DNA from: Bacteroidales bacterium
Lineage (GTDB): Bacteria > Bacteroidota > Bacteroidia > Bacteroidales > UBA932
Reading direction: 5' to 3'
DNA: 41,885 nt
Assembly: GCA_015060445.1 (NCBI GenBank)
Contig: SUYL01000054.1
Coordinates: forward strand, 1-41,885
A model generated the notes under the pieces. That model was not told where the DNA came from and searched no databases. It saw only the letters and a program-made list of their open reading frames with translations. The position numbers and the translations under genes were made by a program. Shown here one piece after another: positions 244 through 41,697 of the stretch (the first letter of the stretch is position 1; every line of letters begins with the position of its first letter).

Positions 244-972
244 ATGGACAAGAAGGTTATTATAATCCCCACTTACAATGAAAAGGAGAATATTGAGAAG
301 ATTATAAGGAAAGTTTTCTCATTGCCTGAGGATTTTCACATCCTGGTAATTGATGACGGTTCTCCAGACGGCACTGCAAATATAGTGAAGGGATTACAGA
401 AGGAGTTTACCACAAATCTGCACATTCTGGAGAGGAAGGGAAAACTTGGACTTGGAACTGCATATATAAAAGGTTTCAACTGGGCCCTTGAGAACGGATA
501 TGACTACATTTTTGAGATGGATGCAGATTTTTCACATAATCCCGACGATCTTCCGAAACTTTACAATGCCTGCGCCAAGGAGGGTGCGGGACTGGCAATA
601 GGTTCGAGATACTGCAAGGGTATAAGTGTTGTAAACTGGCCTATCGGGAGGGTGATAATGTCATATTATGCCTCCACTTATGTGAGGACAGTCCTTGGAA
701 TGAAAGTTTATGACTGCACTGCAGGGTTCAAATGCTATACAAAGGAACTTTTGGGGAATATAGACCTTGACAAAATACAGATGAAGGGGTATGGTTTCCA
801 GATTGAGATGAAATATAATGCCTATAAACTGGGATATAAGATTCAGGAGGTTCCAATCATATTCATAGACAGGACCGAGGGTACTTCAAAAATGAGTTCG
901 GGAATTTTTGGCGAGGCATTCTGGGGAGTGCTCAAAATGAAATTCCGCAAAATAACCCCCAAAAAGAGATAA
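244..972 (+). CDS. Polyprenol-phosphate mannose synthase-like GT2 glycosyltransferase
   Basis: This is a 242-residue family 2 glycosyltransferase of the dolichol/polyprenol-phosphate mannose synthase (DPM1) type. It is expected to move a sugar from a nucleotide donor to a polyprenyl phosphate carrier at the inner membrane face. Visible motifs are IPTYNEKENI near the N-terminus, DDGSPDGT at about 37-44, the metal-binding MDADFSHNP at about 92-100, GSRY, and the family signature RTEGTSKMS near the C-terminus. There is no C-terminal membrane segment, so it is the soluble DPM1-like form. The ATG at 244 follows an A-rich leader and is the first in-frame start. It is six bases upstream of pyrC, an adjacency I recall as common in Bacteroidota. 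The exact sugar is inferred from family resemblance only. Confidence 0.88.
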   Translation: MDKKVIIIPTYNEKENIEKIIRKVFSLPEDFHILVIDDGSPDGTANIVKGLQKEFTTNLHILERKGKLGLGTAYIKGFNWALENGYDYIFEMDADFSHNPDDLPKLYNACAKEGAGLAIGSRYCKGISVVNWPIGRVIMSYYASTYVRTVLGMKVYDCTAGFKCYTKELLGNIDLDKIQMKGYGFQIEMKYNAYKLGYKIQEVPIIFIDRTEGTSKMSSGIFGEAFWGVLKMKFRKITPKKR

Positions 973-978
973 CGCAAT

Positions 979-2343
979 ATGGTTACACTTATTAAGAACG
1001 GTACAATAGTAAACGAAGGGCTATCTTTTGCAGGTAGCCTTTTGATTGAAGGGAACAGGATATCAAAAATCATAAGGGAATCTGATTTTGATACTCCCGA
1101 CAAATACAGGGAGGCTGTTGAATCAATTGAGGCAGAAAAGAGTGTTGATGCAACAGGAATGCATGTTATGCCGGGGGTAATTGATGACCAGGTGCATTTC
1201 AGGGAGCCGGGCAACACCCAGAAGGCTACCATTGCTTCTGAGAGTGCTGCCGCAGTGCTTGGAGGTGTAACCAGTTTTATGGATATGCCCAACAACAACC
1301 CTCCTACAACCACAAATGAAGCTCTTGAGGGGAAGTTTGCCATTGCTGCCAAAGAAAGCATGGCCAATTACTCGTTTTACCTTGGTGCCACAAATGAAAA
1401 CCTGGAGGAGATAAAGGGGGTTGACACCAAAAAAGTGTGTGGAATTAAGGTGTTCATGGGCTCCTCTACAGGAAATATGCTTGTAAACAACCCCGAAACA
1501 CTTGAGAAGATTTTCCGTGAATCCCCTACCCTCATTGCCACCCACTGTGAGGAGGAGGATATAATAAAGGCCAATATGGCTGCCTGCACAGAGCAGTACG
1601 GGGAGGAGATCCCTTTTGAAATGCACTACAGGATAAGGAGCAGGGAGGCATGCATTGAGTGTACCCGCAGGGCTCTTGACCTGGCAGTCCGCAACCGCAG
1701 CAGGCTTCACATACTGCACATAAGCACTGCAGATGAAATAGAGATGATACGGGAAGCCAGAAAACTGAACCCTATGATTGAGGGAGAGGTATGTGTACAT
1801 TACATGTGGTTCAACTGCAACGATTACGCCACCTACGGCAGCCGGGTAAAGTGCAATCCTGCCATAAAGACTCCTGAAGACATGGAGGCAATAAGAAGGG
1901 CCGTAAAGGAGGGTATAATAAGGGTTGTTGCAACAGACCATGCCCCACACCTGAAGCAGGAGAAGCAGAACAATTATACAAAGGCGCCAAGCGGACTGCC
2001 CCTGATACAGCACAGCCTACAACTGATGCTGGAATTGAGCCGCAAAGGGATATTTACCGTTGAAGATGTGGTGGCAAGGATGTCACACGGCCCGGCAGAT
2101 TGTTTCGGCATAAAAGAGAGGGGATACATAAGGGAAGGGTACTATGCAGACATTACAATTGCAGACCTCAATCTTCCCGACAGCAATACAACATCCCACC
2201 CCGCATATAAATGCGGCTGGAGCCCGTTTGAGGGGATGACATTCTCCAGTACAATTGTACATACATTTACAAACGGTGTACATGTTGTTGAAAACAGCGC
2301 CCTCACCGGAGAGAGGTGTGCCATGGCATTGGAATTTGAATAA
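979..2343 (+). CDS. pyrC: Dihydroorotase
   Basis: This is a 454-residue class I dihydroorotase of the amidohydrolase superfamily, which cyclises carbamoyl-aspartate to dihydroorotate in pyrimidine synthesis. Motifs in order are VHFREPG (72-78), SFMDMPNNNPPTT, GIKVFMGSS with Lys157, ATHCEEE with His189, LHILHIST (His244/His247) and VVATDHAPH with the catalytic-type Asp320. The DMPN segment argues for dihydroorotase rather than hydantoinase or allantoinase. An oddity is that the first residue of the usual HxH metal pair is Gln71 (DDQVHFREPG). I recall the same Gln in other Bacteroidales dihydroorotases, so it is probably a lineage feature rather than inactivation. It lies 6 bases after the glycosyltransferase and 11 bases before the transporter gene, so co-transcription is likely. 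Confidence 0.92.
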   Translation: MVTLIKNGTIVNEGLSFAGSLLIEGNRISKIIRESDFDTPDKYREAVESIEAEKSVDATGMHVMPGVIDDQVHFREPGNTQKATIASESAAAVLGGVTSFMDMPNNNPPTTTNEALEGKFAIAAKESMANYSFYLGATNENLEEIKGVDTKKVCGIKVFMGSSTGNMLVNNPETLEKIFRESPTLIATHCEEEDIIKANMAACTEQYGEEIPFEMHYRIRSREACIECTRRALDLAVRNRSRLHILHISTADEIEMIREARKLNPMIEGEVCVHYMWFNCNDYATYGSRVKCNPAIKTPEDMEAIRRAVKEGIIRVVATDHAPHLKQEKQNNYTKAPSGLPLIQHSLQLMLELSRKGIFTVEDVVARMSHGPADCFGIKERGYIREGYYADITIADLNLPDSNTTSHPAYKCGWSPFEGMTFSSTIVHTFTNGVHVVENSALTGERCAMALEFE

Positions 2344-2354
2344 CGGCAACAATT

Positions 2355-3811: not shown

Positions 3812-3817
3812 ATAAAG

Positions 3818-14500: not shown

Positions 14501-14862
14501 AACACTGATATTCTAATACTTATAAAAAAATACAACAGGGGGTAGCAAGGATAGAGTTTAACACTGGCAACAACGGATGTATTGTGGACACCGGATGTGC
14601 CCAAACAGGTATCACAACCACCTCCCTGGCACATTCAGATACCTTTTCGTGCCCATAAAGAAACTGTCGGGAACAATTTCATGTAATTTTGTTCCCGACA
14701 GTACAATCTGGTCCCCTCTCCACACAAGCAAAATTTATTTCCTCCTTGAGGCCTGTTTGCTATCCATATTTGAGATTACAGGTAGTACAAAAAAACATAC
14801 TTCTCATATATATTATTTTCATTACACAAATATAGTACAAATACAAAGAGAATATTCATAAA
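14501..14862. other. Intergenic region without a supported gene
   Basis: This part of the divergent intergenic space holds no gene that I can support. A 94-codon frame at 14577-14861 has no recognisable similarity or compositional support. The only clear structure is the inverted repeat at 14663-14702. The bulk could be a decayed gene or an insertion remnant. Confidence 0.5.
14663..14702. repeat. 14-bp perfect inverted repeat built on GTCGGGA
   Basis: ACTGTCGGGAACAA (14663-14676) is followed after a 12-nt loop by its exact reverse complement (14689-14702). The core GTCGGGA is the word that recurs throughout the window. There is no following T-run, and the two flanking genes diverge, so an ordinary terminator role is not obvious. 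Confidence 0.85.
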
Positions 14863-16110: not shown

Positions 16111-16155
16111 GCGTAAAAAAGAAATAGCGGGGTGACCGCTACTTCTTTTTTACGC
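16111..16155. terminator. Bidirectional terminator between convergent genes
   Basis: Two 20-nt arms (16111-16130 and 16136-16155) pair with one mismatch around a 5-nt loop. The lower stem consists of an A-run facing a T-run, so U-rich tails form on both strands. It lies 33 bp after the ATPase stop, and its right arm covers the last codons of the minus-strand gene ending at 16139. Confidence 0.8.
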
Positions 16156-18763
16156 CTGTCGGTTCCACCTTCCTCTCAATTATCTTCTCCACATAGTGAT
16201 ACTGTCGGGAAGAAGACCTGCCCTCCACCTCAATGCGGTATTGTGAATCTGAATCAGAGGTGTAGAAACAGATTGTGGCTTCTCCATTCTCATCTAGTTT
16301 AACAGCTGGGTTCCAGTACAATGTGATACGGTTATCATCTTCCTTAGATTTTTTTCTCTCCGGTGTATCATATTTTGGAGAGTAGAACTTTGCCGGTTTT
16401 TGCCATCCTAGGGGATTGGCACTGGTAACATTGTATGGAATATCCTTTTCCCTGTATGGTTTTGTACGAATCATTAGAACAGGGGAAGGATACAAGGCTC
16501 CAATATTTTGTTGGAATGGTGCAGCGGAAAAACCCTGAACAAAAATCATTGATTCAATATCCGACAATTTCAAATTAAATAAGTAAAAATCTGAAAACTC
16601 CGCAGGGGAAATAGCTATCCCATTCATATATATTTGAACTACTGAAGTTGGAGGGCCCATTGTGGATTTTACAGTACGAGGTGTTATGGCCCTTGCTACC
16701 AACAAAGGTCTGATATCTTGGGTTTGAACTCTCAAACCATAAAAATTATCTCTCAAAAAAGTCTCAAGATCATAATGCTTGACATATGGTTTCATGTCAG
16801 ACGTATCTCTATACCATGACTTATTTATAGGGTAATTGGGAATAGGACTTGGTGAGTTTTTTGGAGTAATAAGCTGCGATGTCACTACTACGGGGTTCAA
16901 CTCAAATGCCATTGCATGATCACCGTCTTCACCGTTATAGTATATAGACTCTACTACCTTGCTGTATATTGGAGAATATTTTACTTTTTCAGGTTTTATA
17001 GGGTATATGTAGTCAGGTGCATAGTAATCATCACGCAATACTGGCATATGGCTGGTACTTCTGCCATTTTTACCCACTGCACTCACTATAAATCTTGTAT
17101 TCTCCGGGAAATCAACATCTTTAAGAACAAAATAACCTGAATCTATCTGGCCCATTGCCTTAAAGTTGATTGAAGGAGCCAAAAACGAAACAGTTGCCTT
17201 CTTTGTAAGTCCAACAGGATTTACAACCTTTCCAAATAGGGTTTGTCTGTACTCCCTGCCAAAATTTGGCACTTCGTTCTTACCTTGAAAAATCTTTTCA
17301 ATATCATAATATCTCCATCCTTGGGTCTGCATAAGCATATCAGCCTTATGCATTCTTACTGAAAGAGGTATTGAGTCATTAAAATACCAATCTATATTCT
17401 CTATATAGCCTTTAATTTCACTCTTAAGAAGCATATATGACTGCATAGTGGTTTTCTCACAATTCTCCACTATCCCCATATCGGTTACAGCAACAGAGAA
17501 ATTGGAACCTTCACCTATCATCTCCTTTGGAAGCTTGATTTTGACATCAACCAGTTCCCTTGTACTATACTCTTCCTTTTGAGTTTCCAGTTCAAGACTC
17601 TCTTTTGTTGCAGGAAGAACCATAAATGGTCTTTCAGCATACACATTGCCAACCGAATCCACAACTGATACTGAATGAATTCCTGCATTAAGCTGCTGCA
17701 ACCTCAATGCTATAGATTCATTTATTCCCTGCAAACGTTTGCTGTAGTAAATTTCCGAACCATTGTGTATATATACATTCAACCCTGTATACTGGAGATT
17801 ACCAAACACACTTACGGTGAAAATAATCTTATCACCTTCGCCATAAGTATTCTTGGCTCTTATATCAAAACTCCCATTGACAGTAACGCCTTTATCCATT
17901 ACTTTTGGCAATTTCACCTTCTTCCATTCGTAGCCAAGTGAATCTTTAACAGTAGCTGTAAGCTTGCCTTCAGGAATTGTCGCCAGCTTTACTTTTCCAA
18001 ATCCTAAAGAATCTGTTGAATAATGGCCTATTATATTGTCATTTTCATCCTTAATATCACCAAACACCTGCACTCCTGCTCCTTTCTTGCCTACAGCCTT
18101 CACATACAATACAGAGTGTTCTCCTTGTACATAATTACCGCTCTCGGGTAAAAACTGCACATCATATCTTATATCTTCATCCTTCTTATCTTTATCAAAC
18201 GGAGATTGTGCACCAACTCGTGCGTACTCCCTCCTATTCTTCACTTTCTTCTTCTCCATAGCTGTTACCAACTTATCCTTCATGGGATTAGTAAGTTCCA
18301 GTTCCTTATAGAACATATACTCTGCAGGTCTGTTAAGCATCCAATAAGTGTAAGCCCTCAATATTGCCCTGCCAGTAGAACTCATTTCCGGCACAGCGAT
18401 ATATCCTTGAAAACTGTTATTCACAATTTTCAACTTTTTCCTGCTCACAACAGTCTTTTCCAATACTGAATGGTTAGTCCAACTGGTAAAATCCCTGTTC
18501 AGCTCATCACTGATAAGCTCCACATAAATATAATTGGACTCATCAAACTCACTCGCATAAGAGGCATTCTCCACATAACCGCTGAACCAGATGGTGTCGG
18601 TGGCAAAGTAGACATCCTTGTCTGTGTGGAGGTATACCTTCTCTGGAGAAAGGAGTTTTGAGTAATTATGAAAAAGTTCCTTCTGTTTGCTTGAATCTGT
18701 TTGTGCGCTTGTGGTTGAAAGTGACAATGCAGCGCATATCAGCAGGGCCAGTTTTCTGTACAT
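16139..18763 (-). CDS. Exported MG2/plug-domain protein of Bacteroidota type
   Basis: This 874-residue protein has a signal peptide (about 1-20, ending in TTSAQ). Near the N-terminus YLHTDKDVYFATDTIWFSGY is typical of macroglobulin MG2-like domains of Bacteroidota surface proteins. Several beta-rich repeats follow. At about 690-790 lies a TonB-receptor plug-like region (DLETFLRDNFYGLRVQTQDIR and VVQIYMNGIAISPAEF), but no beta-barrel follows, so it is not a full receptor. The C-terminus (VKLDENGEATICFYTSDS) resembles the closing domain of this family. The role is unknown and envelope location is inferred. Its leader (18766-18841) matches that of the 13320-14423 gene. It ends in the bidirectional hairpin at 16111-16155. 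Confidence 0.8.
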   Translation of the reverse strand: MYRKLALLICAALSLSTTSAQTDSSKQKELFHNYSKLLSPEKVYLHTDKDVYFATDTIWFSGYVENASYASEFDESNYIYVELISDELNRDFTSWTNHSVLEKTVVSRKKLKIVNNSFQGYIAVPEMSSTGRAILRAYTYWMLNRPAEYMFYKELELTNPMKDKLVTAMEKKKVKNRREYARVGAQSPFDKDKKDEDIRYDVQFLPESGNYVQGEHSVLYVKAVGKKGAGVQVFGDIKDENDNIIGHYSTDSLGFGKVKLATIPEGKLTATVKDSLGYEWKKVKLPKVMDKGVTVNGSFDIRAKNTYGEGDKIIFTVSVFGNLQYTGLNVYIHNGSEIYYSKRLQGINESIALRLQQLNAGIHSVSVVDSVGNVYAERPFMVLPATKESLELETQKEEYSTRELVDVKIKLPKEMIGEGSNFSVAVTDMGIVENCEKTTMQSYMLLKSEIKGYIENIDWYFNDSIPLSVRMHKADMLMQTQGWRYYDIEKIFQGKNEVPNFGREYRQTLFGKVVNPVGLTKKATVSFLAPSINFKAMGQIDSGYFVLKDVDFPENTRFIVSAVGKNGRSTSHMPVLRDDYYAPDYIYPIKPEKVKYSPIYSKVVESIYYNGEDGDHAMAFELNPVVVTSQLITPKNSPSPIPNYPINKSWYRDTSDMKPYVKHYDLETFLRDNFYGLRVQTQDIRPLLVARAITPRTVKSTMGPPTSVVQIYMNGIAISPAEFSDFYLFNLKLSDIESMIFVQGFSAAPFQQNIGALYPSPVLMIRTKPYREKDIPYNVTSANPLGWQKPAKFYSPKYDTPERKKSKEDDNRITLYWNPAVKLDENGEATICFYTSDSDSQYRIEVEGRSSSRQYHYVEKIIERKVEPTGVKKK

Positions 18764-23627: not shown

Positions 23628-25592
23628 ATGAAAAACTTAGCACTACTCATGTTTGCTCTCTGCCTTTTTACAGGAGCATTTTCACAAGACAAAAATAACA
23701 GTTTCCAGTTCGGGAAACCGACTCAGGAAGAGTTTTCAATGAACTCATATTCCAAAGACACTACAGCACCAGCGGTAATACTGTACGAAGAGATGGTTGT
23801 TTATTACGAAATAAACCAGCAGGGGAATCTGTTCCAGAACCGCACCATCACCCGAAAAATAAAAGTACTTGAAAAGGAAGGAGCATCTTATGGAGATGTT
23901 GAGATATCTCTATACAGACCCGACAACTCCACTTGCGTTCTGGAGAAGGTGGAAGCATGCTCATTCAATATGGAGAACGGCAAAACTGTAAAGTCTCCTG
24001 TAAAGAAACAAATGATATTCAGGGAAAAGGTATCAGATAACATGACATTGGTCAAATTCTCCATTCCTGACATAAAGGCAGGCTCAATAATTGAATACAG
24101 GTACACCGTAAGAGATGATCTTATCTTCAACATCCCTTCCCACGAATTCCAGCATGATATCCCAACCATATACTCCAGAGTCAGTTACTCTATTCCGGAA
24201 TACTTCAAATTCAATATTATGGTTTCAGGATATCAGCATGTTGATGTTCAAAGGGGCTCACAATCCAAGACAGCATACATTGCAGGTTATCCCCTTACAT
24301 TTGAAGAGGACATTGTTACCGGCATTGCGGCCGATGTACCTGCCCTCAAGAATGAACCTTATGTATGGAACTACAAGGAATATATAAGCAAACTCTCCCT
24401 GGAACTTGATGAATACAGATTCCCTGGACAACTTGTACAGAAAATCTCATCCGACTGGAAGACTGTATGCGAAAACCTTAAAGAATCCAGATTTGGAACC
24501 CATATGAAGATGGACAACCCTCTGAGGAAGGAGATGGCAGGATTGTATGCGGCAGATGCATCTGATGAAGAGAAAATAAGGAAAATACTGCAACTTTTGA
24601 AGAGCAGAATAAAATGGAACAAGAAAATTTCCCTTTTGACAAATTCTCCAAAAAGCGCCTTGGACAAAGGAGAAGGCAATTCTGCAGATATAAACTTTAT
24701 CCTCAGGGCAATGCTTGAGGATGCAGGGTATGTGGCAACTCCAATGCTGCTGAATCCAAGATATCTGAACAGAATCAGATTCCAAGCCACTCTTGAGGGT
24801 ATCAATTGCTTCATACTCCAAGTAAAGATGTCTGACGGAAAAATCTGTTATCTCGACGGCACAAATGAATTTGCAGACATCAACCTCCTTCCTGAATACC
24901 TGTTGGTTGACAAGGCTCATCTGTATGGAGATTTTACAAATACTTTCCATGACCTCACTGCCCTTACACACAACAGTACCAGGAGGTCCATTGCAGGGAA
25001 TATTGATACTTCCGGGGCATTCAGGATCAATATGAGGATACAATACAACAACATGGATGCATTCAATGCCAACAACCGCCTGGCAAGATACAACTCTAAG
25101 GAGGAATATATAGAGTCACTTGAAAAGCAGATGCAGAAAACGGTATCGGACTACAAGATAGACAAAAGCAACACCAAAGTAGTTGAATCATACGGGTTTG
25201 ACCTGGAATCTGCAACGGCAGGGGATTTCATATACCTTAATGCAATTCTCCTTCCTGAATTTTCAAGCAACCCTTTCAAGGCTCCAGACAGGAAACTCCC
25301 TATTGAATTTGACCACCCAAGGACTTCAAGGACAGATTGCACATATACCATTCCCGACGGATATACAGTGGAGGAAATGCCTGGGAATACCGCCATTACC
25401 GCATGTGAGGGAGGGCTTCAGGCAAGGTTCATTACTGCACATAACAATAATACAGTACAGGTTTCATTCACATTCAATATTGGAAGAATAATCTTTGCAC
25501 CATCTGAATATGAAGAAATCAGTGCATTCTTTGCAAAACTTATGGAGTTGTCGGGACAACAGATAGTATTGAAAAAACAGGTACAGCAATGA
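23628..25592 (+). CDS. DUF3857/transglutaminase-like exported protein lacking catalytic residues
   Basis: This 654-residue protein has a signal peptide (about 1-19, ending in GAFSQ). A DUF3857 domain spans about 50-220, and a transglutaminase-like domain about 270-420. In the transglutaminase part the position of the catalytic Cys is Ser352 (GEGNSADINF), and that of the His is Cys394 (INCFILQV). Only the third residue Asp410 (CYLDGTN) remains. The comparison is with the paralogue that follows. It is therefore expected to be a binding or scaffold protein rather than an enzyme. A C-terminal beta-rich part resembles DUF2569/DUF3858-type tails. It overlaps the next gene by four bases (ATGA), so translation is coupled. 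The substrate and partner are unknown. Confidence 0.85.
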   Translation: MKNLALLMFALCLFTGAFSQDKNNSFQFGKPTQEEFSMNSYSKDTTAPAVILYEEMVVYYEINQQGNLFQNRTITRKIKVLEKEGASYGDVEISLYRPDNSTCVLEKVEACSFNMENGKTVKSPVKKQMIFREKVSDNMTLVKFSIPDIKAGSIIEYRYTVRDDLIFNIPSHEFQHDIPTIYSRVSYSIPEYFKFNIMVSGYQHVDVQRGSQSKTAYIAGYPLTFEEDIVTGIAADVPALKNEPYVWNYKEYISKLSLELDEYRFPGQLVQKISSDWKTVCENLKESRFGTHMKMDNPLRKEMAGLYAADASDEEKIRKILQLLKSRIKWNKKISLLTNSPKSALDKGEGNSADINFILRAMLEDAGYVATPMLLNPRYLNRIRFQATLEGINCFILQVKMSDGKICYLDGTNEFADINLLPEYLLVDKAHLYGDFTNTFHDLTALTHNSTRRSIAGNIDTSGAFRINMRIQYNNMDAFNANNRLARYNSKEEYIESLEKQMQKTVSDYKIDKSNTKVVESYGFDLESATAGDFIYLNAILLPEFSSNPFKAPDRKLPIEFDHPRTSRTDCTYTIPDGYTVEEMPGNTAITACEGGLQARFITAHNNNTVQVSFTFNIGRIIFAPSEYEEISAFFAKLMELSGQQIVLKKQVQQ

Positions 25593-27436
25593 TAAAAAAA
25601 ATATTAGTATATACTCTTGTCCTTGTGTTAAGTACATTGGAGTTGGAGTGCCACGCACAAAATGCCACAATACTGTTGGACAGCACTTATGTAAGGTGCA
25701 CCTCCATCTCTTCCATGACCAGTATAAACTACAAGAGGATATTGGTTCTCAACAGTGCCGGGAGCCGATATGCGAATTTCGTTTGCACTACCGACAACAA
25801 CCGATCCCTCAAAAGTTTCAAATGTACAATAACACCCATGAACGGGAAAAAGCGCACATTGGGGAAAAAGGATATCTCATCCACAGAGTTGTCGGAGAAT
25901 CTGGCGGACGATTACACAACCCATTATCTTGAAGTGACCAACTCCACCTACCCCTACATGGTGGAACTCGAGTACCAGACAGATTATTCAAACGGTTATA
26001 TCTCCATGCCATCATTTGCACCGGCATATATGCATGGCGCCAATGTACAGAAAGCAGTATATCACCTTGTCACCCCACAGGAAATGTCATGGTCATACAA
26101 ATGTGTAAATATGGAGACAAAACCCCATACAAGAGTGGAAAAAGGGGAAAAGCATACAATCTGGAGGCTTGAGAATCTGAATCCGTACAAACACGATGCA
26201 TTCATGCCTGCTATGGAGAGCATTCTCCCGCACATGTACGTTACTCCCGACAGGTTCCTTTTCTACAAAATTGAGGGAAACTCGAGTTCTTGGGAGGAAT
26301 ACGGCAAATGGCAGTGGGGCCTTATGGAAGGGAGAGACATTCTACCCGACAGACTGAAAGAAATTGTACATGAAATTACAGACACAATAAGTCTCAGACG
26401 TGAAAAGATAAGGGCATTATACAATTATCTTGGCCATACCACAAGGTACGTAAGCATACAGATGGGACTTGGCGGTCTGCAGCCTATGACTGCAACACAA
26501 GTATATGAAAACGGATTTGGAGACTGCAAAGCCCTTACAAACTACCTTAAAGCATTGCTCAAGGAGTGCGGCATAGAATCCAACTATGTGGAGATAAATA
26601 CCCAAAACCCCAAAATATTGAGGGACCATGCCTCAGTCTACCAGACAAACCATGCCATACTTAAGGTACCGGACCCCGAAGGGGACCTGTGGCTGGAATG
26701 CACAAACTCAGAAATTCCTTTCGGATTCCTGCATGACGGCATAGCAGGACACGATGCTGTTGTGTATTCCAATGGTACCGCATCAATAGAGACTCTTCCC
26801 AATTATCCCGACTCAACCAATATAATAAACTCGGAAGTACATATAAGGATATTGGAAAACGGCAATGCTGAAGTTGTTGTAAATGAAAAATACCATAACC
26901 AATGCTGCGAAAACATGCATGGGATAACAAAACTCGGCCCTACAAAGCAGACAGAAATAATAAAGGGGGAAATTGCAGCCCCTTCGTGTTCAATTTCCAA
27001 CATAAAAAGCATTGGTAAAGAGGAAAATCACCCACAACTGCATCTGACCTATACCCTGGAGAGCCAGGATTGGATTTCAAGGAGCGGTAACAGGATGTTC
27101 ATTCCAATCTCAATATTCAGGAGGTCATCTCCCCAATTCAATAAAGAACGGGAACTTGACATAGAAGTACGTAATGGACATACATGGGTACAGAAAATCC
27201 AACTGGAACTGCCACAGGGATATGTCATTGAAGGTATTCCAAAAGATGCTGCGGCCTCATGCTGCCTGGGCAGCATAAAATTCACCGCAAAAGCAAGCGG
27301 CAAATACGTTGACATTACCATTGAGAGGAAATATTCAAACGGCAAATACGATGCGGCAAAGATTGGGGAAGTAAAAGGGTTCTTCACTTCCATGGATAAA
27401 ATATGCGGCCAAAAAATAGTGGTAAGCAAACAATAA
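25589..27436 (+). CDS. DUF3857/transglutaminase-like exported protein with Cys-His retained
   Basis: This 615-residue protein is homologous in layout to the preceding one. It has a signal peptide (about 1-24, ending in CHAQ), a DUF3857 domain (about 30-210) and a transglutaminase-like core (about 240-400). The catalytic Cys is present as Cys313 (GFGDCKALTNYL) and the His as His355 (TNHAILKV). The third position is Glu370 (WLECTN) where Asp is usual, so activity is plausible but not certain. The start ATG overlaps the stop of the upstream gene by four bases. Periplasmic or surface location is inferred. Enzyme-type activity would be amide hydrolysis or transfer on unknown peptide or glycan-linked substrates. 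Confidence 0.86.
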   Translation: MIKKILVYTLVLVLSTLELECHAQNATILLDSTYVRCTSISSMTSINYKRILVLNSAGSRYANFVCTTDNNRSLKSFKCTITPMNGKKRTLGKKDISSTELSENLADDYTTHYLEVTNSTYPYMVELEYQTDYSNGYISMPSFAPAYMHGANVQKAVYHLVTPQEMSWSYKCVNMETKPHTRVEKGEKHTIWRLENLNPYKHDAFMPAMESILPHMYVTPDRFLFYKIEGNSSSWEEYGKWQWGLMEGRDILPDRLKEIVHEITDTISLRREKIRALYNYLGHTTRYVSIQMGLGGLQPMTATQVYENGFGDCKALTNYLKALLKECGIESNYVEINTQNPKILRDHASVYQTNHAILKVPDPEGDLWLECTNSEIPFGFLHDGIAGHDAVVYSNGTASIETLPNYPDSTNIINSEVHIRILENGNAEVVVNEKYHNQCCENMHGITKLGPTKQTEIIKGEIAAPSCSISNIKSIGKEENHPQLHLTYTLESQDWISRSGNRMFIPISIFRRSSPQFNKERELDIEVRNGHTWVQKIQLELPQGYVIEGIPKDAAASCCLGSIKFTAKASGKYVDITIERKYSNGKYDAAKIGEVKGFFTSMDKICGQKIVVSKQ

Positions 27437-28623: not shown

Positions 28624-29388
28624 ATGCAACTGAATCTTAAAAACCCCATAGTATTCTTTGACATTGAGAGCACAGGCCTCAATGTGGCATCTGACAGGAT
28701 TGTTGAAATATGCGCCGTAAAGGTTATGCCAAACGGTGATGAAGAGGTAAAGACAAGGAGGATAAACCCCACAATTCCAATATCTGCAGAAGCACAGGCT
28801 GTACACGGCATTTCAAATGAAGATGTAAAGGACTGCCCAACATTTAAGGAGATAGCCAAAAGCCTCGCCAAATGGATGGAGGGCTGCGATTTTGCCGGAT
28901 ACAACTCCATAAAGTTTGACATTCCTCTCCTTGCAGAGGAATTCCTTAGAGTTGGTATAGACTTCGATTTCCGCAAACGCCACCTTGTAGATGTGCAGAA
29001 CATCTTCCACAAGATGGAACAGAGGACCCTGTCTGCAGCATACAAGTTCTACTGCCAGAAAGATCTTGAAAATGCACACTCTGCTGAGGCTGACACCCTT
29101 GCCACTTATGAAATCCTTAAGGGGCAGTTGGACAGATATCCCGACACTCTTGAGAATGATGTGAAGATGCTTGCAGAGTTCTCCACAAAGACCAAACTTA
29201 TAGATTATGCCGGAAGGATTGCACTCAATGACAAGGATGTTCCGGTATTCAATTTCGGCAAGCACAAGGGGAAACCCGTTGAAGAGGTATTCAGGAGCGA
29301 ACCAAGTTATTATTCTTGGATGATGAACGGAGACTTTACCCTGGACACAAAGAAAGTCATTACCGAACTCAAACTTAAAATGAGGTAA
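28624..29388 (+). CDS. DEDDh 3'-5' exonuclease (DnaQ/ExoX-like)
   Basis: This is a 254-residue exonuclease of the DnaQ family. The metal-binding residues are Asp13 and Glu15 (FFDIESTGLN), Asp99 (NSIKFD), and His152 and Asp157 (HSAEAD), giving the DEDDh signature. After the nuclease domain (about 1-170) lies a C-terminal extension with FNFGKHKGKPVEEV and YYSWMM, as seen in ExoX-like and Bacteroidota exonucleases. It probably supplies proofreading or repair activity. Whether it is the true epsilon subunit is not certain, since other DnaQ copies usually exist. Its position 5 bases after dnaN supports a replication role. Confidence 0.93.
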   Translation: MQLNLKNPIVFFDIESTGLNVASDRIVEICAVKVMPNGDEEVKTRRINPTIPISAEAQAVHGISNEDVKDCPTFKEIAKSLAKWMEGCDFAGYNSIKFDIPLLAEEFLRVGIDFDFRKRHLVDVQNIFHKMEQRTLSAAYKFYCQKDLENAHSAEADTLATYEILKGQLDRYPDTLENDVKMLAEFSTKTKLIDYAGRIALNDKDVPVFNFGKHKGKPVEEVFRSEPSYYSWMMNGDFTLDTKKVITELKLKMR

Positions 29389-29902: not shown

Positions 29903-31121
29903 TCTTTGCCGCAGCACTTGCTGCAGCCATTGCTCCTGTCGAGAATGCTATCTGGAGATTATACCCGCCTGTATCTCCATCAAGATCAAGCACTTCTCCG
30001 GCAAAATACAACCCTTCAACAAGTTTTGACTCCATGCTCTTCTGGGATACTTCCTGCAGGGAAACACCTCCGGCAGTTACCACACACCTTTCATATCCCA
30101 CATATCCGGCTATAGGGAAACTCCAACATTTGAGCCTCTGATGCAGATTGCTTACTGCAATTCCTCTGTTTTCTTCAATAAAAAGTTTCACCAGACTGCC
30201 AGGCAGAAGTTTATGCAACAGCCCCTTCAACTGGTCACCTTTAATCTGTGCCAACTCCCTATTAATCCTCTCCTGCAACTGTTTCTCAGTTACAGCAGGT
30301 TTCATGTCGAGCCTCAATTCCACCCTCTGTCCGTTTATGATGCTGTGTACCCCCTTTCTGCTCACTTTAAAACCTATAGGCCCCTCTATTCCACCATTGG
30401 TAAAATCCAGATCTCCAAACTCCTCCTGAACAACATCTCCATTAACAACCAGTTGTACAGATACATTCTTCAGAGAAATTCCATAAAACTCTTCCCGATA
30501 GTTTTTTGGGGTAAGGGCAGTCAATGACGGGAAACACGGTGTAATCTTATGTCCAAGCCCTTTTGCAAATGCATATCCGTCTCCCGACGATCCTGTAGTT
30601 GGATAGGACATTCCTCCCGTTGCAATTATGATTGCTCTGGAACGGATTTGCCCCTCCCGGGTGGAAATAACGAAGTTGTCGGGAAGATGGGATATCTCCA
30701 CAACCGGAGAATTTTTCCGTATCTCAATGCCTCCTGAAGATATATGCCTCTCAAGAGCCGCTACAACATCCAGTGCCTTCATGCTCTGAGGGAAAACCCT
30801 GTCTCCCCTCTCAACAACAAGTGGAAGCCCAATCCCCTCAAAAAACTCCATTACAGCCATATTGCTCATGGCATAGAAAGAATTCTTGAGGAAAATATTC
30901 TTTGGATGAATATGGGTAGAAAACTCATTCCATGGCTTTGTATTGGTTAAATTGCAACGCCCCTTGCCTGTTATACCAATTTTAAGTCCACACCGGTGCA
31001 TCTTCTCCAGCAGAAGAACATTGAGGGAATTGCCCTCTTTAATATAAGAAGAAAGGGTTGCAGCCGCAAAAAGTCCGGCTGCTCCCCCTCCTACTATTGT
31101 TATGTCGTAAATTTTACCCAA
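29892..31121 (-). CDS. HI0933-family FAD-dependent flavoprotein
   Basis: This 409-residue protein has the FAD-binding Rossmann motif VGGGAAGLFAA near the N-terminus and the family signature ITGKGRCNLTN (about 48-58), which marks the HI0933/YhiN family of NAD(P)/FAD-dependent oxidoreductases. A C-terminal GGYNLQIAFSTG segment is also typical. The physiological reaction is not known. It is one base after the butyrate kinase stop codon on the same strand, so it is likely the last gene of the ackA-ptb-buk transcript. Its tail overlaps the convergent FAH-like gene by 11 bases. Confidence 0.9.
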   Translation of the reverse strand: MGKIYDITIVGGGAAGLFAAATLSSYIKEGNSLNVLLLEKMHRCGLKIGITGKGRCNLTNTKPWNEFSTHIHPKNIFLKNSFYAMSNMAVMEFFEGIGLPLVVERGDRVFPQSMKALDVVAALERHISSGGIEIRKNSPVVEISHLPDNFVISTREGQIRSRAIIIATGGMSYPTTGSSGDGYAFAKGLGHKITPCFPSLTALTPKNYREEFYGISLKNVSVQLVVNGDVVQEEFGDLDFTNGGIEGPIGFKVSRKGVHSIINGQRVELRLDMKPAVTEKQLQERINRELAQIKGDQLKGLLHKLLPGSLVKLFIEENRGIAVSNLHQRLKCWSFPIAGYVGYERCVVTAGGVSLQEVSQKSMESKLVEGLYFAGEVLDLDGDTGGYNLQIAFSTGAMAAASAAAKITR

Positions 31122-34403: not shown

Positions 34404-34404
34404 T

Positions 34405-35442: not shown

Positions 35443-36534
35443 ATGGATAGAGGCGTCATTACATATACTGCAGCATACCTTGCAGGAATAACTGCATCTG
35501 TCCTTACCGACATCTCTCCCATTCCGGCAGTTTTTTCCTTAACACTCTTATTGCCTTTATCATACCTTTTAAGAAAAAATACAATAATCTTCCTCCTTTG
35601 TTCACATCTGGCACTCTTTGCCTGTGGCGTGGGCATTTGTTCAATATCCTGCATCAACCGCACACTCCCTCCTCACAAATTAATGGAATCCATTGATACC
35701 CGTTCAAGGCAAGTACAGGAAAAGATTGCAGAACATTTGGGTACACTTGTTCCAAACCCACAATCACATGCCGTGGTTTGTGCCTTAGCCATAGGAGAAA
35801 AGGGGCTGATGGGGAAAGAACTTAAAAAATCATTTTCAGCAGCAGGGGCAATGCATGTACTGGCGCTGTCGGGACTCCATATATGGATAGCGTTTGCAAT
35901 AATGTACTCTCTCCTTTTTCCGCTTACATTTTTGTCGGGAGGCAAAAGGGCAAGAAACGCCATTGCCCTGTTGTTTATTGCCGCATACTGCATAATGGCA
36001 GGATGCACCCCCTCTGTTATAAGGGCTGCCACAATGATATTCCTCTATAAAATTGCAGCAGGGAAATACCGTTCCATTTCAAATTGGGATGCAATTGCCA
36101 TCTCGGCACTCATAACATGCACAATCAATCCGATGCAGATTGAAAATATAGGATTCCAACTCTCTTACAGTGCAGTTATAGGGATTGCCCTGTTTTTCCC
36201 CACATGCAACAATGCCTTCTTGAAACTTGTACCAAAATGGGGTGGATGGAGAGGACACCTGTGGAAAGGGGTGCACTGGCTATGGGGCAGCATTGCAATT
36301 TCAGTATGCTGTCAAATTGCAACGATGCCGGCTTCGCTATTTTATTTCGGCTACAGCGCCCCCCACTTTCTCCTGGCAAACCTGGCCGCAGTACCGCTGG
36401 CAACAGGAATTATGTACTCACTCACAATAGCACTACCACTGCAGGGGATACCACTGATGGGTGAGGTTTCTGCCAAGATCCTGAATATCCTTATAGAATT
36501 GCTCATTTCCACTGTAACATACATTGGAGGCTGA
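35443..36534 (+). CDS. comEC: ComEC/Rec2-family competence membrane protein, core only
   Basis: This is a 363-residue polytopic protein containing the Competence domain. The central motif MHVLALSGLHIWIAFAI and the GCTPSVIRAATMIFLYKIAAG segment are the family hallmarks. In known systems ComEC forms the inner-membrane channel for single-stranded DNA uptake. Here the usual N-terminal OB-like DUF4131 region is reduced to about 60-90 residues, and the protein ends just after the competence core with no C-terminal domain, so it is about half the length I remember for Bacteroidota homologues. No frameshift with continuing coding sequence is visible after the stop. It may still be functional, or it may be a degraded form. 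Confidence 0.82.
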   Translation: MDRGVITYTAAYLAGITASVLTDISPIPAVFSLTLLLPLSYLLRKNTIIFLLCSHLALFACGVGICSISCINRTLPPHKLMESIDTRSRQVQEKIAEHLGTLVPNPQSHAVVCALAIGEKGLMGKELKKSFSAAGAMHVLALSGLHIWIAFAIMYSLLFPLTFLSGGKRARNAIALLFIAAYCIMAGCTPSVIRAATMIFLYKIAAGKYRSISNWDAIAISALITCTINPMQIENIGFQLSYSAVIGIALFFPTCNNAFLKLVPKWGGWRGHLWKGVHWLWGSIAISVCCQIATMPASLFYFGYSAPHFLLANLAAVPLATGIMYSLTIALPLQGIPLMGEVSAKILNILIELLISTVTYIGG

Positions 36535-36950: not shown

Positions 36951-38969
36951 TTATCTTATTATCTCCATCTCCTCAAGCAGATGGTCAGCATCTGCAAGTT
37001 TGTCAATAATAAAGAGAGCAAACCTTATATCAAGGGATATGTTCCTGCAAATTTCAGGATCATACACAACATCGCTCATGGTTCCTTCCCAAACCCTGTC
37101 GAAGTTAACGCCAATAAGATTTCCTTCCGCATCCAGAACAGGGCTGCCTGAATTTCCCCCTGTAGTGTGGTTTGTGGCAATGAAAGCAACAGGTACAGAG
37201 CCGTTGACCTCCCACTCGCCATAATCCTTGGCTGCATGAAGATCCCTCAAGGCCTGCGGGATATTGTAATCGTAAATCTCAGGATTATCCTTCTCAATTA
37301 TACCGTCAAGGCTTGAAACTGGTGTATAATATACTGCATCAGATGGTGAGTATCCCTTAACCTGGCCATAAGCAACCCTAAGGGTTGAGTTGGCATCGGG
37401 ATAAAAGACCTTCATTCCTCTGGTTGCCTTGTTGTACTCCATCTGACCCATCATATAAGTACGGTACAGAAGGGTAATCTCCCTGTTTACAGAATCAAGC
37501 ACTGGGGCAAAGTTGTCATTGAAGAACTTGTTGGTATTGCGGTAAATCTCAGCCGCCATCTCAAGATTGGGCTCCTGAGTGAAAATTGCCTCAGCCCACG
37601 CCTCTACAGAACCGAATTTCTGCAGTTGTTCCTTAAAATATGGAGCCTTGTACTTGTCTGCTATATTTTTGTCGTATGCCTTGTACAAAGCAATGAAACA
37701 ATCCTTGTCAATAGGCATGTAGTAATCTTTGTAGAATCTCTCCGCTCCTCTCTGCCCCCTTCCGGCAAAAGCAACAAGTTCAACTGCATTGAGTGCCTCG
37801 CTCTGATAATCCCTTACAAGTGAAATCTCCTCAATGGCAGCATACAGTTCCCTGAACCTTGAAACAAGGTTCTCATACTCCGGCTTGCCCTCAGACCATT
37901 TTGTAAAATTGGCCTCAAATTCCTGCTTGTTCTCAATGGCACGCATCTTTATGATACCTTTTGCCTCACCCTGCCATTTCTTCCATGCATTGGAAACGTT
38001 TGCATTCTTGGAAGCATATTTGATTCTTACAGCAGGATCCTTTGCCATCTCGCGGTTCTGGATATCGAGTCTCAGTGTCCTCAAGGCAATCTTATGGGGA
38101 TTGGACTTATAGGCAGTGTATTTTACGGCATCTGAGAAAAGATACTCGTTTGTCCTGCCAGGGAAACCGTAAACCATTGTAAAGTCACCCTCCTGAATCC
38201 CTTTTGCATTTATCTTGAAGAACCTTTTTGGTTTGTAAGGGACATTATCCTTTGAATATGGAGCAGGCTCATTGTCGGGACCTGCATATACTCTGAAAAG
38301 GCTGAAGTCTCCTGTATGTCTTGGCCACATCCAGTTGTCGGTATCTCCACCAAACTTGCCTATTGATGAAGGTGGTGCCCCAACAAGTCTCACATCAGAA
38401 AATACCTTAAACACATAAAGGTAATACTGGTTTCCATAATAAAGGGGCTTTACAGATACACTCACACTGCTCCTCCCCTTTTTTGCCTTTTCAATTATCT
38501 TCTTTGTATTCTTTTCAATCAATTCGGTACGTTTCTCCTCGCTCATCCCCTTCTTGTAGCCTTTCATCACCTGCTCGGTAACATCCTCCATATAGTCGAG
38601 GAATGAAACTGTAAGACCCGGATTTGGAAGTTCCTGATCTCTTGTCATAGCCCAGAAACCGTTGGTAAGATAGTCGTGCTCAACAGAACTGTGCTGCTGT
38701 ATCTGTCCGTATCCGCAATGGTGGTTGGTAATGAGCAACCCCTCATTGGAGATGATTTCACCGGTACATCCACCGCCAAAATGTACAACCGCATCCTTGA
38801 GCGACGAGTTGTTGATACTGTAAATGTCTTCAGCAGTAAGTTTAAAACCCTTCTCCTGCATATCCTTTATCTTCAGGATAATCTCAGAGGGGAGCCACAT
38901 GCCTTCATCGGCCCTGAGCAATGATGTTCCCGACAAAAGGAAAATGACTGCAAACAATATTTTTCTCAT
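36951..38969 (-). CDS. S46-family dipeptidyl-peptidase, DPP11-like
   Basis: This 672-residue secreted serine peptidase of family S46 has a signal peptide (about 1-20). The catalytic regions are GLLITNHHCGYG (His), HTGDFSLFR (Asp221) and TTGGNSGSPVLD (Ser607). The residue 18 positions after the catalytic serine is Arg625 (NFDRVWEG). In Porphyromonas gingivalis the equivalent position is Arg673 in DPP11, which selects Asp/Glu at P1, while DPP7 has Gly. By that rule this is a DPP11-like, acidic-specific enzyme. It would supply acidic dipeptides from the periplasm for fermentation. It follows the DUF1846 gene by 43 bases on the same strand. Confidence 0.93.
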   Translation of the reverse strand: MRKILFAVIFLLSGTSLLRADEGMWLPSEIILKIKDMQEKGFKLTAEDIYSINNSSLKDAVVHFGGGCTGEIISNEGLLITNHHCGYGQIQQHSSVEHDYLTNGFWAMTRDQELPNPGLTVSFLDYMEDVTEQVMKGYKKGMSEEKRTELIEKNTKKIIEKAKKGRSSVSVSVKPLYYGNQYYLYVFKVFSDVRLVGAPPSSIGKFGGDTDNWMWPRHTGDFSLFRVYAGPDNEPAPYSKDNVPYKPKRFFKINAKGIQEGDFTMVYGFPGRTNEYLFSDAVKYTAYKSNPHKIALRTLRLDIQNREMAKDPAVRIKYASKNANVSNAWKKWQGEAKGIIKMRAIENKQEFEANFTKWSEGKPEYENLVSRFRELYAAIEEISLVRDYQSEALNAVELVAFAGRGQRGAERFYKDYYMPIDKDCFIALYKAYDKNIADKYKAPYFKEQLQKFGSVEAWAEAIFTQEPNLEMAAEIYRNTNKFFNDNFAPVLDSVNREITLLYRTYMMGQMEYNKATRGMKVFYPDANSTLRVAYGQVKGYSPSDAVYYTPVSSLDGIIEKDNPEIYDYNIPQALRDLHAAKDYGEWEVNGSVPVAFIATNHTTGGNSGSPVLDAEGNLIGVNFDRVWEGTMSDVVYDPEICRNISLDIRFALFIIDKLADADHLLEEMEIIR

Positions 38970-40479: not shown

Positions 40480-40487
40480 ACGGGATA

Positions 40488-40495
40488 CAAAGATA
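40488..40495 (-). promoter_or_regulatory. -7 box of the DUF1846 gene
   Basis: The minus strand reads TATCTTTG (40495-40488), an exact -7 consensus match, 8 bases before the chosen ATG. The very short spacing would give a leader of only a few bases or a leaderless message. Confidence 0.45.
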
Positions 40496-40562
40496 ATTTT
40501 TTTAAGGACCTTTTCAATAAAGATAATGAAAAAAAATTGCCCCCTCTTACGCAACTTCTTCG

Positions 40563-40570
40563 TATATTTG
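40563..40570 (+). promoter_or_regulatory. -7 box of the AI-2E-family gene
   Basis: TATATTTG fits TAnnTTTG 20 nt before the ATG at 40591. A TTG at 40537-40539 is 23 nt further upstream, slightly long for a -33 box. Confidence 0.5.
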
Positions 40571-40590
40571 GGGTTAAATAGAGAAAAATT

Positions 40591-41697
40591 ATGAACAACC
40601 TCTCAAAATACATATTCATCTGCGCAATAACCGCAGCCATACTCTTTGTGGCATGGTATTTCAGCAATATACTTACATGCATTCTCATATCGGCTGTACT
40701 TGCACTTGTGGGACACCCTGTCATGGAATTCCTCACATCATTAAGGATAGGTAAAATCAAGATGCCCGTTTCAATTGCAGCCCTTATAACCCTGGTTGCA
40801 ATTGCCGGAATATTGTCGGGAGTAATACTCTTCATAATACCTCTTTTGGGTAAAATTGTAAGTGAAATGAGTGCCCTCAACCTTGAAGAGATAAACAGCA
40901 AACTGGCAATTCCACTCCAGGATATAAATATAAAGCTGCATGAACTCTTCCCTACAATGGACAAAGGGTTTACAATAGAGCAGATGCTAATGGAGAAGAT
41001 TAGGGCAATCTTCAGTTTCTCCCTGTTTACAGATGCATTCAATTCTGTAACCTCATTCATAATAAATACCTTTGTATCAATATTCACAATAGTATTCGTA
41101 ACATTCTTCTTCCTTAAGGACAACAGCACCTTCCCAAATATGATTCTCATCTTTGTTCCCGACAAATATGAAGAGAACACACGGAGGGCCATTTCCAGCA
41201 TAAATGCCCTGCTGATAAGATACTTTACAGGAATAAGCATTGAAGCCATTTTCATCACCATAATCAACACATTGGGTCTGCATCTGATTTGCGGAGTGTC
41301 ATTCCAGATGTCTGTGGTGCTGGCATTCCTGTCGGGAGTATTGAATGTTATACCTTATATAGGACCGCTCACTGCAGGGGCATTCGGTACAATAATGGGA
41401 ATAATCTCATTCTACAGCAGCGGCACCGACCCCAATCTTGCAGTTGAGACCCTGAAACTGATATGCGTATTTACAGCCACCCATCTTGTGGATGTCTTCA
41501 TATTCCAGCCGTACATATACTCAAATAGCGTAAAGGCACATCCGCTGGAGATTTTCCTTGTAATCCTCATTGCCGGAAATGTTGCAGGGATAACTGGAAT
41601 GCTGATTGCCATCCCAGCCTACACAGTTGTGAGAGTCATTGCAAAGGAGTTCTTCTCCAACTTCAAACTGGTAAAGAAACTCACCGACAAGATGTAG
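40591..41697 (+). CDS. AI-2E family transporter (PF01594-type)
   Basis: This is a 368-residue membrane protein with about eight hydrophobic segments. The N-terminus has two segments, followed by an amphipathic region (about 90-170) and a C-terminal membrane block with GVLNVIPYIGPLTAGAFGTIMG and FIFQPYIYSNSVKAHPL, both typical of the AI-2E/YdiK/PerM family. Despite the name, most members are not proven AI-2 exporters, and some act as sodium-proton antiporters. Its downstream terminator region appears to be interrupted by an IS element (41723-41885). Confidence 0.92.
   Translation: MNNLSKYIFICAITAAILFVAWYFSNILTCILISAVLALVGHPVMEFLTSLRIGKIKMPVSIAALITLVAIAGILSGVILFIIPLLGKIVSEMSALNLEEINSKLAIPLQDINIKLHELFPTMDKGFTIEQMLMEKIRAIFSFSLFTDAFNSVTSFIINTFVSIFTIVFVTFFFLKDNSTFPNMILIFVPDKYEENTRRAISSINALLIRYFTGISIEAIFITIINTLGLHLICGVSFQMSVVLAFLSGVLNVIPYIGPLTAGAFGTIMGIISFYSSGTDPNLAVETLKLICVFTATHLVDVFIFQPYIYSNSVKAHPLEIFLVILIAGNVAGITGMLIAIPAYTVVRVIAKEFFSNFKLVKKLTDKM

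What the first reader, a model, noticed from the sequence alone, without database searches (positions are those of the whole stretch)
540..41337. Over-represented octamer YGTCGGGA: possible DNA uptake-like sequence
By eye I found GTCGGGA or TCCCGAC 28 times in 41.9 kb: 540, 1095, 2175, 2897, 4204, 4381, 9335, 10815, 11193, 12720, 14666, 14693, 16204, 23146, 25352, 25550, 26245, 26806, 29139, 30582, 30678, 35868, 35934, 38274, 38928, 40815, 41157 and 41331. Roughly 3-5 are expected for a 7-mer of this composition on both strands. The preceding base is T or C in all but one case, so the word is closer to YGTCGGGA. The plus-strand orientation is balanced (14 each), which argues against Chi- or KOPS-type strand-biased motifs. 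In genes it is read mostly as SG (TCG GGA) or PD (CCC GAC), in both orientations. The only intergenic copies form an inverted pair, as uptake sequences often do in Neisseria and Haemophilus. One-base variants seem rare (I noticed GACGGGA near 30526 and GTCGGGC near 22289). A ComEC-family gene is in the same window. Other explanations are dicodon bias, a protein-binding or methylation site.
Basis: partly seen in the sequence, partly recalled or inferred. Interest (0 to 1): 0.75.

Follow-up and report, generated by a model that had tools for sequence, protein, structure and literature searches.

The report
Uptake-like self-word with dialects, Bacteroidales
A short DNA word is repeated about 1,350 times across this gut bacterium's genome, is kept in place by evolution, and is replaced by a related word in sister species, as are the words by which a few other bacteria recognise their own DNA for uptake; that use is likely here but not yet shown.

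Summary
In detail: all 28 GTCGGGA copies are where stated (1.47 expected), 27 of 28 follow Y, 14 per strand. The genome has 1,357 (reversed word 334). Codon usage does not explain it: 209 in ORFs against 18.2 after synonymous shuffling. Strands are balanced.

In 12 of 39 genus genomes YGTCGGGA is at least threefold over its reversed control. A sister clade instead has ATCGCYGAG, in 11 of 39. The words share RTCG-N(1-2)-GA. The two sides of the genus tree carry different words, with losses. Sites persist among genomes with the same word (138 of 343, background 10%) and not in genomes with neither (0 of 160). A 21-kb conjugative transposon has one copy against 13 expected. Decline of enrichment with mismatches resembles that published for Haemophilus and Neisseria.

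Best reading: a DNA uptake sequence with dialects in Bacteroidota, maintained by biased uptake and recombination. Uptake is inferred. A barrel/DUF5689 gene row resembling Riemerella transformation genes tracks ATCGCYGAG within the genus but not in the family. A HIP-like or protein-binding role is not excluded.

The parts
540..546 (-). GTCGGGA copy, in glycosyltransferase-family ORF 244-972
   Evidence: conserved in L009
1095..1101 (-). GTCGGGA copy
   Evidence: not conserved in L009
2175..2181 (-). GTCGGGA copy
   Evidence: conserved in L009
2897..2903 (+). GTCGGGA copy
   Evidence: conserved in L009
4204..4210 (-). GTCGGGA copy, in Tex ORF
   Evidence: one change in L009
4381..4387 (+). GTCGGGA copy, in Tex ORF
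   Evidence: two changes in L009
9335..9341 (+). GTCGGGA copy
   Evidence: conserved in L009 and L010
10815..10821 (+). GTCGGGA copy, in argS
   Evidence: conserved in L009, not L010
11193..11199 (-). GTCGGGA copy, in argS
   Evidence: conserved in L009 and L010
12720..12726 (-). GTCGGGA copy
   Evidence: conserved in L009, not L010
14666..14672 (+). GTCGGGA copy, left arm of intergenic inverted pair
14693..14699 (-). GTCGGGA copy, right arm of intergenic inverted pair
16204..16210 (+). GTCGGGA copy
23146..23152 (+). GTCGGGA copy, in trypsin/PDZ (DegP-like) ORF
25352..25358 (-). GTCGGGA copy
25550..25556 (+). GTCGGGA copy
26245..26251 (-). GTCGGGA copy
26806..26812 (-). GTCGGGA copy (the only one preceded by A)
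29139..29145 (-). GTCGGGA copy
30582..30588 (-). GTCGGGA copy
30678..30684 (+). GTCGGGA copy
35868..35874 (+). GTCGGGA copy inside the comEC-family gene
35934..35940 (+). GTCGGGA copy inside the comEC-family gene
38274..38280 (+). GTCGGGA copy, in S46 peptidase ORF
38928..38934 (-). GTCGGGA copy, in S46 peptidase ORF
40815..40821 (+). GTCGGGA copy
41157..41163 (-). GTCGGGA copy
41331..41337 (+). GTCGGGA copy
35443..36534 (+). ComEC-family gene (short form, 363 aa), putative inner-membrane DNA channel
   Evidence: Pfam Competence 6.5e-49; NCBIfam ComEC_N-term over its cut-off, ComEC_Rec2 under its cut-off; family found in 38 of 39 genus genomes

Best explanation
YGTCGGGA (in this genome YYGTCGGGA-R-N-A) is most likely a DNA uptake sequence. 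Inferred steps: cells take up free DNA preferentially when it carries the word; homologous recombination of such fragments spreads and restores the word; it therefore accumulates on both strands, in whatever codon frames tolerate it, over the core genome. When receptor specificity drifts the word changes, giving dialects: GTCGGGA, relaxed to C-Y-R-TCG-N-GA in G003, and ATCGCYGAG on the other side of the genus, possibly with ATCGGGA and ATCGTGA forms between. Shown here: enrichment, strand symmetry, excess over codon use, site conservation only within a dialect, mismatch profile, near-absence from a conjugative transposon, two words on the two sides of the genus tree. Inferred: sequence-specific uptake, competence, the receptor.
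For: Genome-wide 1,357 copies in 2.18 Mb, 672/685 by strand. Synonymous shuffle 209 against 18.2, sd 4.46 (G000), and 93 against 1.95 for CTGTCGGGA (G003). G-rich against C-rich strand 96/105 and 77/79. Enrichment at mismatch load 0/1/2: 66x/2.7x/1.1x (G000), 147x/4.2x/1.0x (G003), 30x/3.4x/1.1x (ten ATCGCYGAG genomes); the published H. influenzae and N. gonorrhoeae uptake words fall off similarly (section read, PMC1939737). Site conservation: 138 of 343 against 10.2% background within the GTCGGGA group, 0 of 160 against 5.9% in genomes with neither word; 222 of 457 against 23.6% within the ATCGCYGAG group, 0 of 103 against 4.3% in the GTCGGGA group. Two words on two sides of the tree sharing RTCG-N(1-2)-GA. 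ComEC 38/39, DprA 38/39, and a ComEA-type HHH match in an open frame under 500 aa (so not Tex) listed for each of 39 genomes, all under the family cut-off (counted by eye). In P. gingivalis ComEA and ComEC are needed for competence (passages of PMC11532111); in R. anatipestifer ComEC, DprA, ComF and an HHH protein (abstract and passages of PMC8459023).
Against: No uptake assay. Competence genes are equally present in genus genomes without an enriched word, so they do not discriminate. No receptor was identified for the GTCGGGA side. The barrel that tracks ATCGCYGAG within the genus occurs at 53-61% identity in 15 genomes of other genera with only 14-146 copies of that word. TGTCGGGA reaches 8- to 9-fold over its reversed control in some genera of the family (for example G126 292/32, G147 124/15) at lower density, so the reversed control is lenient and specificity to the genus is not shown. 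No excess of inverted pairs. Type IV pili, the uptake apparatus of the known cases (recalled), were not searched for. Pairwise site counts are not independent, and for ATCGC[CT]GA retention allowed either letter at one position while background required identity.
Confidence: 0.62

Rival explanations
1. HIP-like word: created and kept by a DNA methyltransferase coupled to biased mismatch repair, as modelled for cyanobacterial HIP1.
For: HIP words are also highly over-represented and are replaced in a few exceptional strains (abstract and passages of PMC4390886).
Against: HIP words are palindromes tied to methyltransferases; GTCGGGA and ATCGCYGAG are not palindromic and differ in spacer length. 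No methyltransferase was searched for.
Confidence: 0.12
2. Binding site of a chromosome-structuring, recombination or self-recognition (defence) protein spread over the chromosome.
For: Site conservation and scarcity in mobile DNA fit any core-genome binding site; the word in G003 is about threefold denser between ORFs.
Against: In G000 density is equal in and between ORFs (0.61 and 0.59 per kb); no strand pattern and near-random spacing; several related genomes do without it.
Confidence: 0.18
3. Chi-like or KOPS-like oriented motif.
For: G-rich word.
Against: No bias: 75/76 by strand in 21 stretches of the closed G003 chromosome; 96/105 and 77/79 on the G-rich strand.
Confidence: 0.02
4. Composition or dicodon bias only.
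For: Most copies in the window read as SG or PD.
Against: Synonymous shuffle excess of about 11- and 48-fold; equal density between ORFs in G000; not enriched in close relatives.
Confidence: 0.01

Closest known systems
Neisseriaceae DNA uptake sequence (DUS) and its dialects
   Same: Highly over-represented word; dialects follow phylogeny and share a short core; one published dialect differs by an inserted base (abstract and passages of PMC3630211).
   Different: Different phylum and word; copy numbers in the passages seen are higher (2,245-5,918) than the 1,357 here; ComP/type IV pilus receptor not shown here; no excess of inverted pairs.
Pasteurellaceae uptake signal sequence (USS)
   Same: Similar fall of enrichment with mismatch load; an A-rich 3' flank in G003 recalls the AT-rich flanks of USS (recalled).
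   Different: Unrelated word; uptake untested here.
Cyanobacterial HIP1
   Same: Over-represented short word with replacements in exceptional strains.
   Different: HIP1 is a palindrome tied to methyltransferases; these words are not palindromes.
Chi sites
   Same: Over-represented short G-rich word.
   Different: No strand bias here; Chi orientation bias is recalled.

Membership tests
DNA uptake sequence (DUS/USS) | Strong genome-wide over-representation beyond codon usage | tested here: met
   (codon null on a 366-kb sample)
DNA uptake sequence (DUS/USS) | No strand preference | tested here: met
DNA uptake sequence (DUS/USS) | One-mismatch forms modestly enriched, two-mismatch forms near expectation | tested here: met
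   compared with the table in PMC1939737
DNA uptake sequence (DUS/USS) | Related species carry dialects congruent with phylogeny | tested here: met
   with losses: 5 label changes where 2 is the least possible
DNA uptake sequence (DUS/USS) | Frequent inverted pairs at gene ends (common, not definitional; recalled) | tested here: not met
DNA uptake sequence (DUS/USS) | Competence machinery encoded | tested here: inconclusive
   ComEC, DprA, ComEA-type matches present but also where no word is enriched; type IV pili and ComF not searched
DNA uptake sequence (DUS/USS) | The word raises DNA uptake or transformation | not testable with these tools
   needs a cultured member
HIP1 | Palindromic word | tested here: not met
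   GTCGGGA and ATCGCYGAG are not palindromes (sequence)
HIP1 | Orphan methyltransferase for the core | not tested
   methyltransferases not searched
Chi | Orientation bias along replichores | tested here: not met

The most novel reading that the evidence does not exclude
A third, independent origin of sequence-specific DNA uptake, in Bacteroidota, with a family of dialects built on RTCG-N(1-2)-GA that divides one gut genus into two DNA-sharing communities, read by an outer-membrane receptor unrelated to type IV pili (possibly of the barrel plus DUF5689/OB-fold lipoprotein kind needed for transformation in Riemerella).
Probability: 0.35. Interest if true: 0.9.

Novelty: new variant of a known kind. 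Interest (0 to 1): 0.78.

Why it matters
Uptake sequences are known to me only from Neisseriaceae and Pasteurellaceae (recalled; the abstract of PMC1939737 names the same two). A case in Bacteroidota, where the outer-membrane step of DNA uptake is unresolved (stated for P. gingivalis in PMC11532111), would show convergent evolution of DNA self-recognition, hand over a natural dialect series for testing how such words drift and split gene pools, and point to unrecognised transformation among gut bacteria. Library searches combining uptake sequences with Bacteroidetes or Bacteroidales listed no paper whose title reports one (five papers, not opened; none).

Tried and rejected
Rejected: composition, codon use, Chi/KOPS, terminator-type inverted pairs as a rule.

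Led nowhere or against: (1) The window's M3 peptidase neighbourhood as counterpart of the barrel/DUF5689 row: its neighbours are RpoD-like and DegP-like, without similarity; the 874-aa ORF 16139-18763 shows no meaningful similarity to the barrel's C-terminal part. (2) The 980-aa barrel as determinant of ATCGCYGAG: at 65% identity or more in all 11 genomes with that word and in G160, G162 and G165 (a 70% fragment in G173), weak or absent in the rest; but among 149 family genomes 15 outside the genus have it at 53-61% with only 14-146 copies of ATCGCYGAG. (3) Endonuclease_NS as a marker: found on both sides. (4) The barrel-like ORFs weakly matched in G000 and G003: no DNA-handling neighbours seen. 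(5) De novo words in genomes with neither word (8-78 kb each): no dispersed word of comparable strength, so other dialects could be missed; the strongest words in G061 (GCATCTGAA) and some in G074 and G027 are local repeats; ACTATCGC in G027 (10 in 78 kb) is dispersed and unexplained. ATCGGGA (G171, G172, G175) and ATCGTGA (G160, G162, G165) rest on 5-10 copies per genome, the latter largely at shared sites. (6) Of 80 named loci kept from 590 relatives, GTCGGGA was the top 7-mer only in L009 and L010. (7) G061: 17 against 3.3 in the sample but 214 against 205 genome-wide. G140 (313 against 227) and G168 (272 against 113) carried the GTCGGGA label although under threefold; G161 has no ComEC match and G174 was not sampled, so neither is in the tree. 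In one search the GTCGGGA group had 9 genomes, the ATCGCYGAG group 11, the group with neither 13; G003, G140, G161, G168, G169 and G174 were left out. (8) The ORF rule (longest ORFs of 80 aa or more) counts the window's intergenic pair as inside an ORF, so intergenic densities are approximate.

Full report
Observation. All 28 copies of GTCGGGA are at the stated places, 14 per strand, against 1.47 in shuffles. The preceding base is T in 21, C in 6 and A in 1; 26 of 28 lie in ORFs (13 as PD on the opposite strand, 10 as SG, 3 otherwise); two form the intergenic hairpin at 14666/14693. The window lies in a 2.18-Mb, 67-contig genome with 672 forward and 685 reverse copies; the word read backwards has 334. 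YGTCGGGA accounts for 1,299 of the 1,357. The window's genes that matched Pfam are mostly housekeeping, transport and peptidase genes.

More than codon use. In 365,639 bases of this genome 309 predicted ORFs hold 209 copies; 60 shuffles of synonymous codons within genes give mean 18.2, sd 4.46, largest 30. In the closed relative G003 (420 kb sampled) CTGTCGGGA occurs 93 times in ORFs against 1.95. Density in and between ORFs is 0.61 and 0.59 per kb (GTCGGGA, G000) and 0.24 and 0.75 (CTGTCGGGA, G003) (all). ORFs were called by a simple longest-ORF rule.

No strand preference, near-random spacing. On the closed G003 chromosome 21 stretches give 75 and 76 copies by strand; on the G-rich strand 77 against 79, and 96 against 105 in G000. 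Spacing has a coefficient of variation of 0.8-1.1. Pairs under 60 bp: 6 against 8.5 expected in G000; 12 against 14.9 for the relaxed word in G003.

Shape of the word. In G000 (221 copies) the consensus is Y-Y-GTCGGGA-R-N-A; in G003 (151 copies) C-Y-GTCGGGA with an A-rich 3' flank, strongest 12 bases after the first G. In G003 the one-mismatch forms CTATCGGGA, CCGTCGGGA and CTGTCG(A/C/T)GA are 36- to 150-fold enriched; the others have at most 6 copies and are 0- to 5.5-fold, so the word there is C-Y-R-TCG-N-GA. In G000 the only strongly enriched one-mismatch form of TGTCGGGA is CGTCGGGA (42-fold; the rest at most 4.8-fold). Enrichment by mismatch load 0/1/2/3 is 66/2.7/1.1/1.0 (G000) and 147/4.2/1.0/1.0 (G003); reversed and permuted control words lie between 0.75 and 1.5 except for two zero counts at load 0. 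The published series for H. influenzae and N. gonorrhoeae uptake words also drops steeply from 0 to 1 to 2 mismatches (section read).

Dialects. Among 39 genus genomes YGTCGGGA is at least three times its reversed control in 12 (G000, G003, G045, G086, G153, G154, G155, G157, G161, G163, G164, G169), 2.4 times in G168, 1.4 times in G140, and at most 1.2 times in the other 25. De novo counting in sisters found another word, ATCGCYGAG; genome-wide it has 274-817 copies against 5-20 for its control in 11 of 39 (G074, G097, G108, G119, G150, G156, G158, G159, G166, G167, G171), 83 against 2 in G175, a few-fold excess on 28-88 copies in several others (including G003, 34 against 7), and 2 against 6 in G000. 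Its tolerant positions give RTCG-N-N-GA(G). Varying the spacer: on the GTCGGGA side one-base spacers are enriched (in G003 ATCGCYGA is also 2.6-fold); in ATCGCYGAG genomes two-base spacers are, and one-base forms RTCGCGA and RTCGTGA more weakly; zero- and three-base spacers reach the flag threshold in no genome. I chose that skeleton after seeing the words, so it is descriptive.

Tree. A concatenated tree of up to six proteins from 37 genomes (unevenly filled, quick search) puts all GTCGGGA-labelled genomes (13, including G140 and G168) with 5 others on one side, and all 11 ATCGCYGAG genomes with 8 others on the other, separated by a starred branch; the three labels need 5 changes (least possible 2; shuffled mean 17.5). 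So the main split of the genus carries two words, with later losses or replacements. In 149 family genomes ATCGCYGAG outside the genus has at most 146 copies, up to about 9-fold over control. TGTCGGGA outside the genus has up to 380 copies and reaches 8- to 9-fold in genera g19 and g20 (G126 292/32, G147 124/15, G127 146/18), near the 950/89 of G000 by ratio though not by density; I could not pursue this.

Sites are maintained. Between the window and L009 (RGIG9426, yak cecum; 79% identical over 12.7 kb) 7 of 10 aligned copies are intact, against 15-20% of matched 7-mers; against L010 (RGIG7222, water buffalo cecum) 2 of 4, against 4-7%. In comEC-centred stretches 138 of 343 aligned copies persist within the GTCGGGA group against 10.2% of background words, 2 of 70 in ATCGCYGAG genomes (7.1%) and 0 of 160 in genomes with neither (5.9%); for ATCGC[CT]GA 222 of 457 (23.6%) within its group, 0 of 103 in the GTCGGGA group (4.3%), 15 of 366 elsewhere (5.9%). 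Copies thus seem gained and held after the split rather than inherited from before it. Pairs share branches, so the counts are not independent.

Foreign DNA nearly lacks it. Among the 100 listed places the longest word-free stretch is C1:56902-78794. It lies in a conjugative transposon with integrase, TraG, TraJ, TraM, TraN-like and TraO genes (TraG over NCBIfam's cut-off, TraJ, TraM and TraN under it, TraJ, TraM and TraO over Pfam's). From the integrase ORF to the end of the traG ORF (57751-78993) there is one copy, inside traG, against 13.2 expected (Poisson 2.6e-5). The stretch was picked after the fact.

Machinery. ComEC is in 38 of 39 genus genomes, in short open frames; DprA in 38 of 39; ComEA-type HHH matches in 39 of 39, none over the cut-off; in G000 the best is Tex in the window and the other a 436-aa protein that matches comEA at 1.8e-14, under its cut-off. 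P. gingivalis and R. anatipestifer, both Bacteroidota, are competent; Riemerella also needs a carboxypeptidase-regulatory-like barrel and a DUF5689 protein. In five ATCGCYGAG-side loci laid out (four from genomes with that word, one from G160) a gene row holds a 385-405-aa lipoprotein (non-specific endonuclease in G108), an Exo_endo_phos_3-type protein, a 980-aa CarboxypepD_reg barrel, a DUF5689 lipoprotein (weak OB-fold match in G108, below cut-off) and an M3-type peptidase (Pfam for G108 only). The barrel is in all 11 ATCGCYGAG genomes and four relatives on the same side and not at that similarity on the other; DUF5689 itself also occurs in six genomes of the other side in larger proteins. 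The barrel also occurs in other genera without the word, and such a row could serve nucleic-acid feeding. I treat it as a lead. Its likeness to the Riemerella genes is by domain content only; that paper reports homologues of its barrel only in Flavobacteriaceae (section read).

Judgement. Three classes of such words are listed in print: Chi, uptake words and HIP (passage of PMC4390886). Strand symmetry speaks against the first; lack of palindromes and the spacer change against the third; what could be tested fits the second except the inverted pairs, while competence genes do not discriminate. Uptake itself remains to be shown.

Noticed in passing
L227:1366-9699 (G108) and similar rows in L228, L229, L232, L239: Row: Endonuclease_NS lipoprotein, Exo_endo_phos_3, 980-aa CarboxypepD_reg barrel, DUF5689 lipoprotein, M3-type peptidase (Pfam for G108; others by eye); candidate DNA import or DNA scavenging locus.
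   Followed up: partly
L234:7279-14818 (G155); similar in L233 (G086) and L237 (G061): Another layout near a metK-like gene: BACON-DUF5689-Endonuclease_NS lipoprotein, OMP_b-brl_4 barrel, BACON/OB-fold lipoprotein (Pfam for G155; others by eye).
   Followed up: partly
G000 C1:57751-78993 (L127, L128): Conjugative transposon (integrase, TraG, TraJ, TraM, TraO, KilA-N and ORF6N proteins) with one GTCGGGA copy where 13 would be expected.
   Followed up: yes
window 1-41885: GATC- and AGCT-containing 5-mers are strongly under-represented (for example TGATC 22 against 73, GAGCT 9 against 49), as if avoided because of restriction.
   Followed up: no
G003 (L145:14151, L149:4853, L154:10974, L158:232): Palindrome CTGTCGCGACAG, two overlapping opposite copies of the relaxed word; GTCGCGAC 22 against 0.42 expected.
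   Followed up: no
L106:11296-12290 (G074): Sixteen copies of a repeat at a 65-67-bp period, CRISPR-like.
   Followed up: no
genera g19 and g20 of the family: TGTCGGGA up to 8- to 9-fold over its reversed control; weak dialect or composition.
   Followed up: no
G027 (L089-L091, L203): ACTATCGC dispersed, 10 copies in 78 kb against 0.5 expected; possible further dialect or relic.
   Followed up: partly
window 16139-18763: 874-aa ORF with no Pfam match above cut-off, beside an M3 peptidase.
   Followed up: partly
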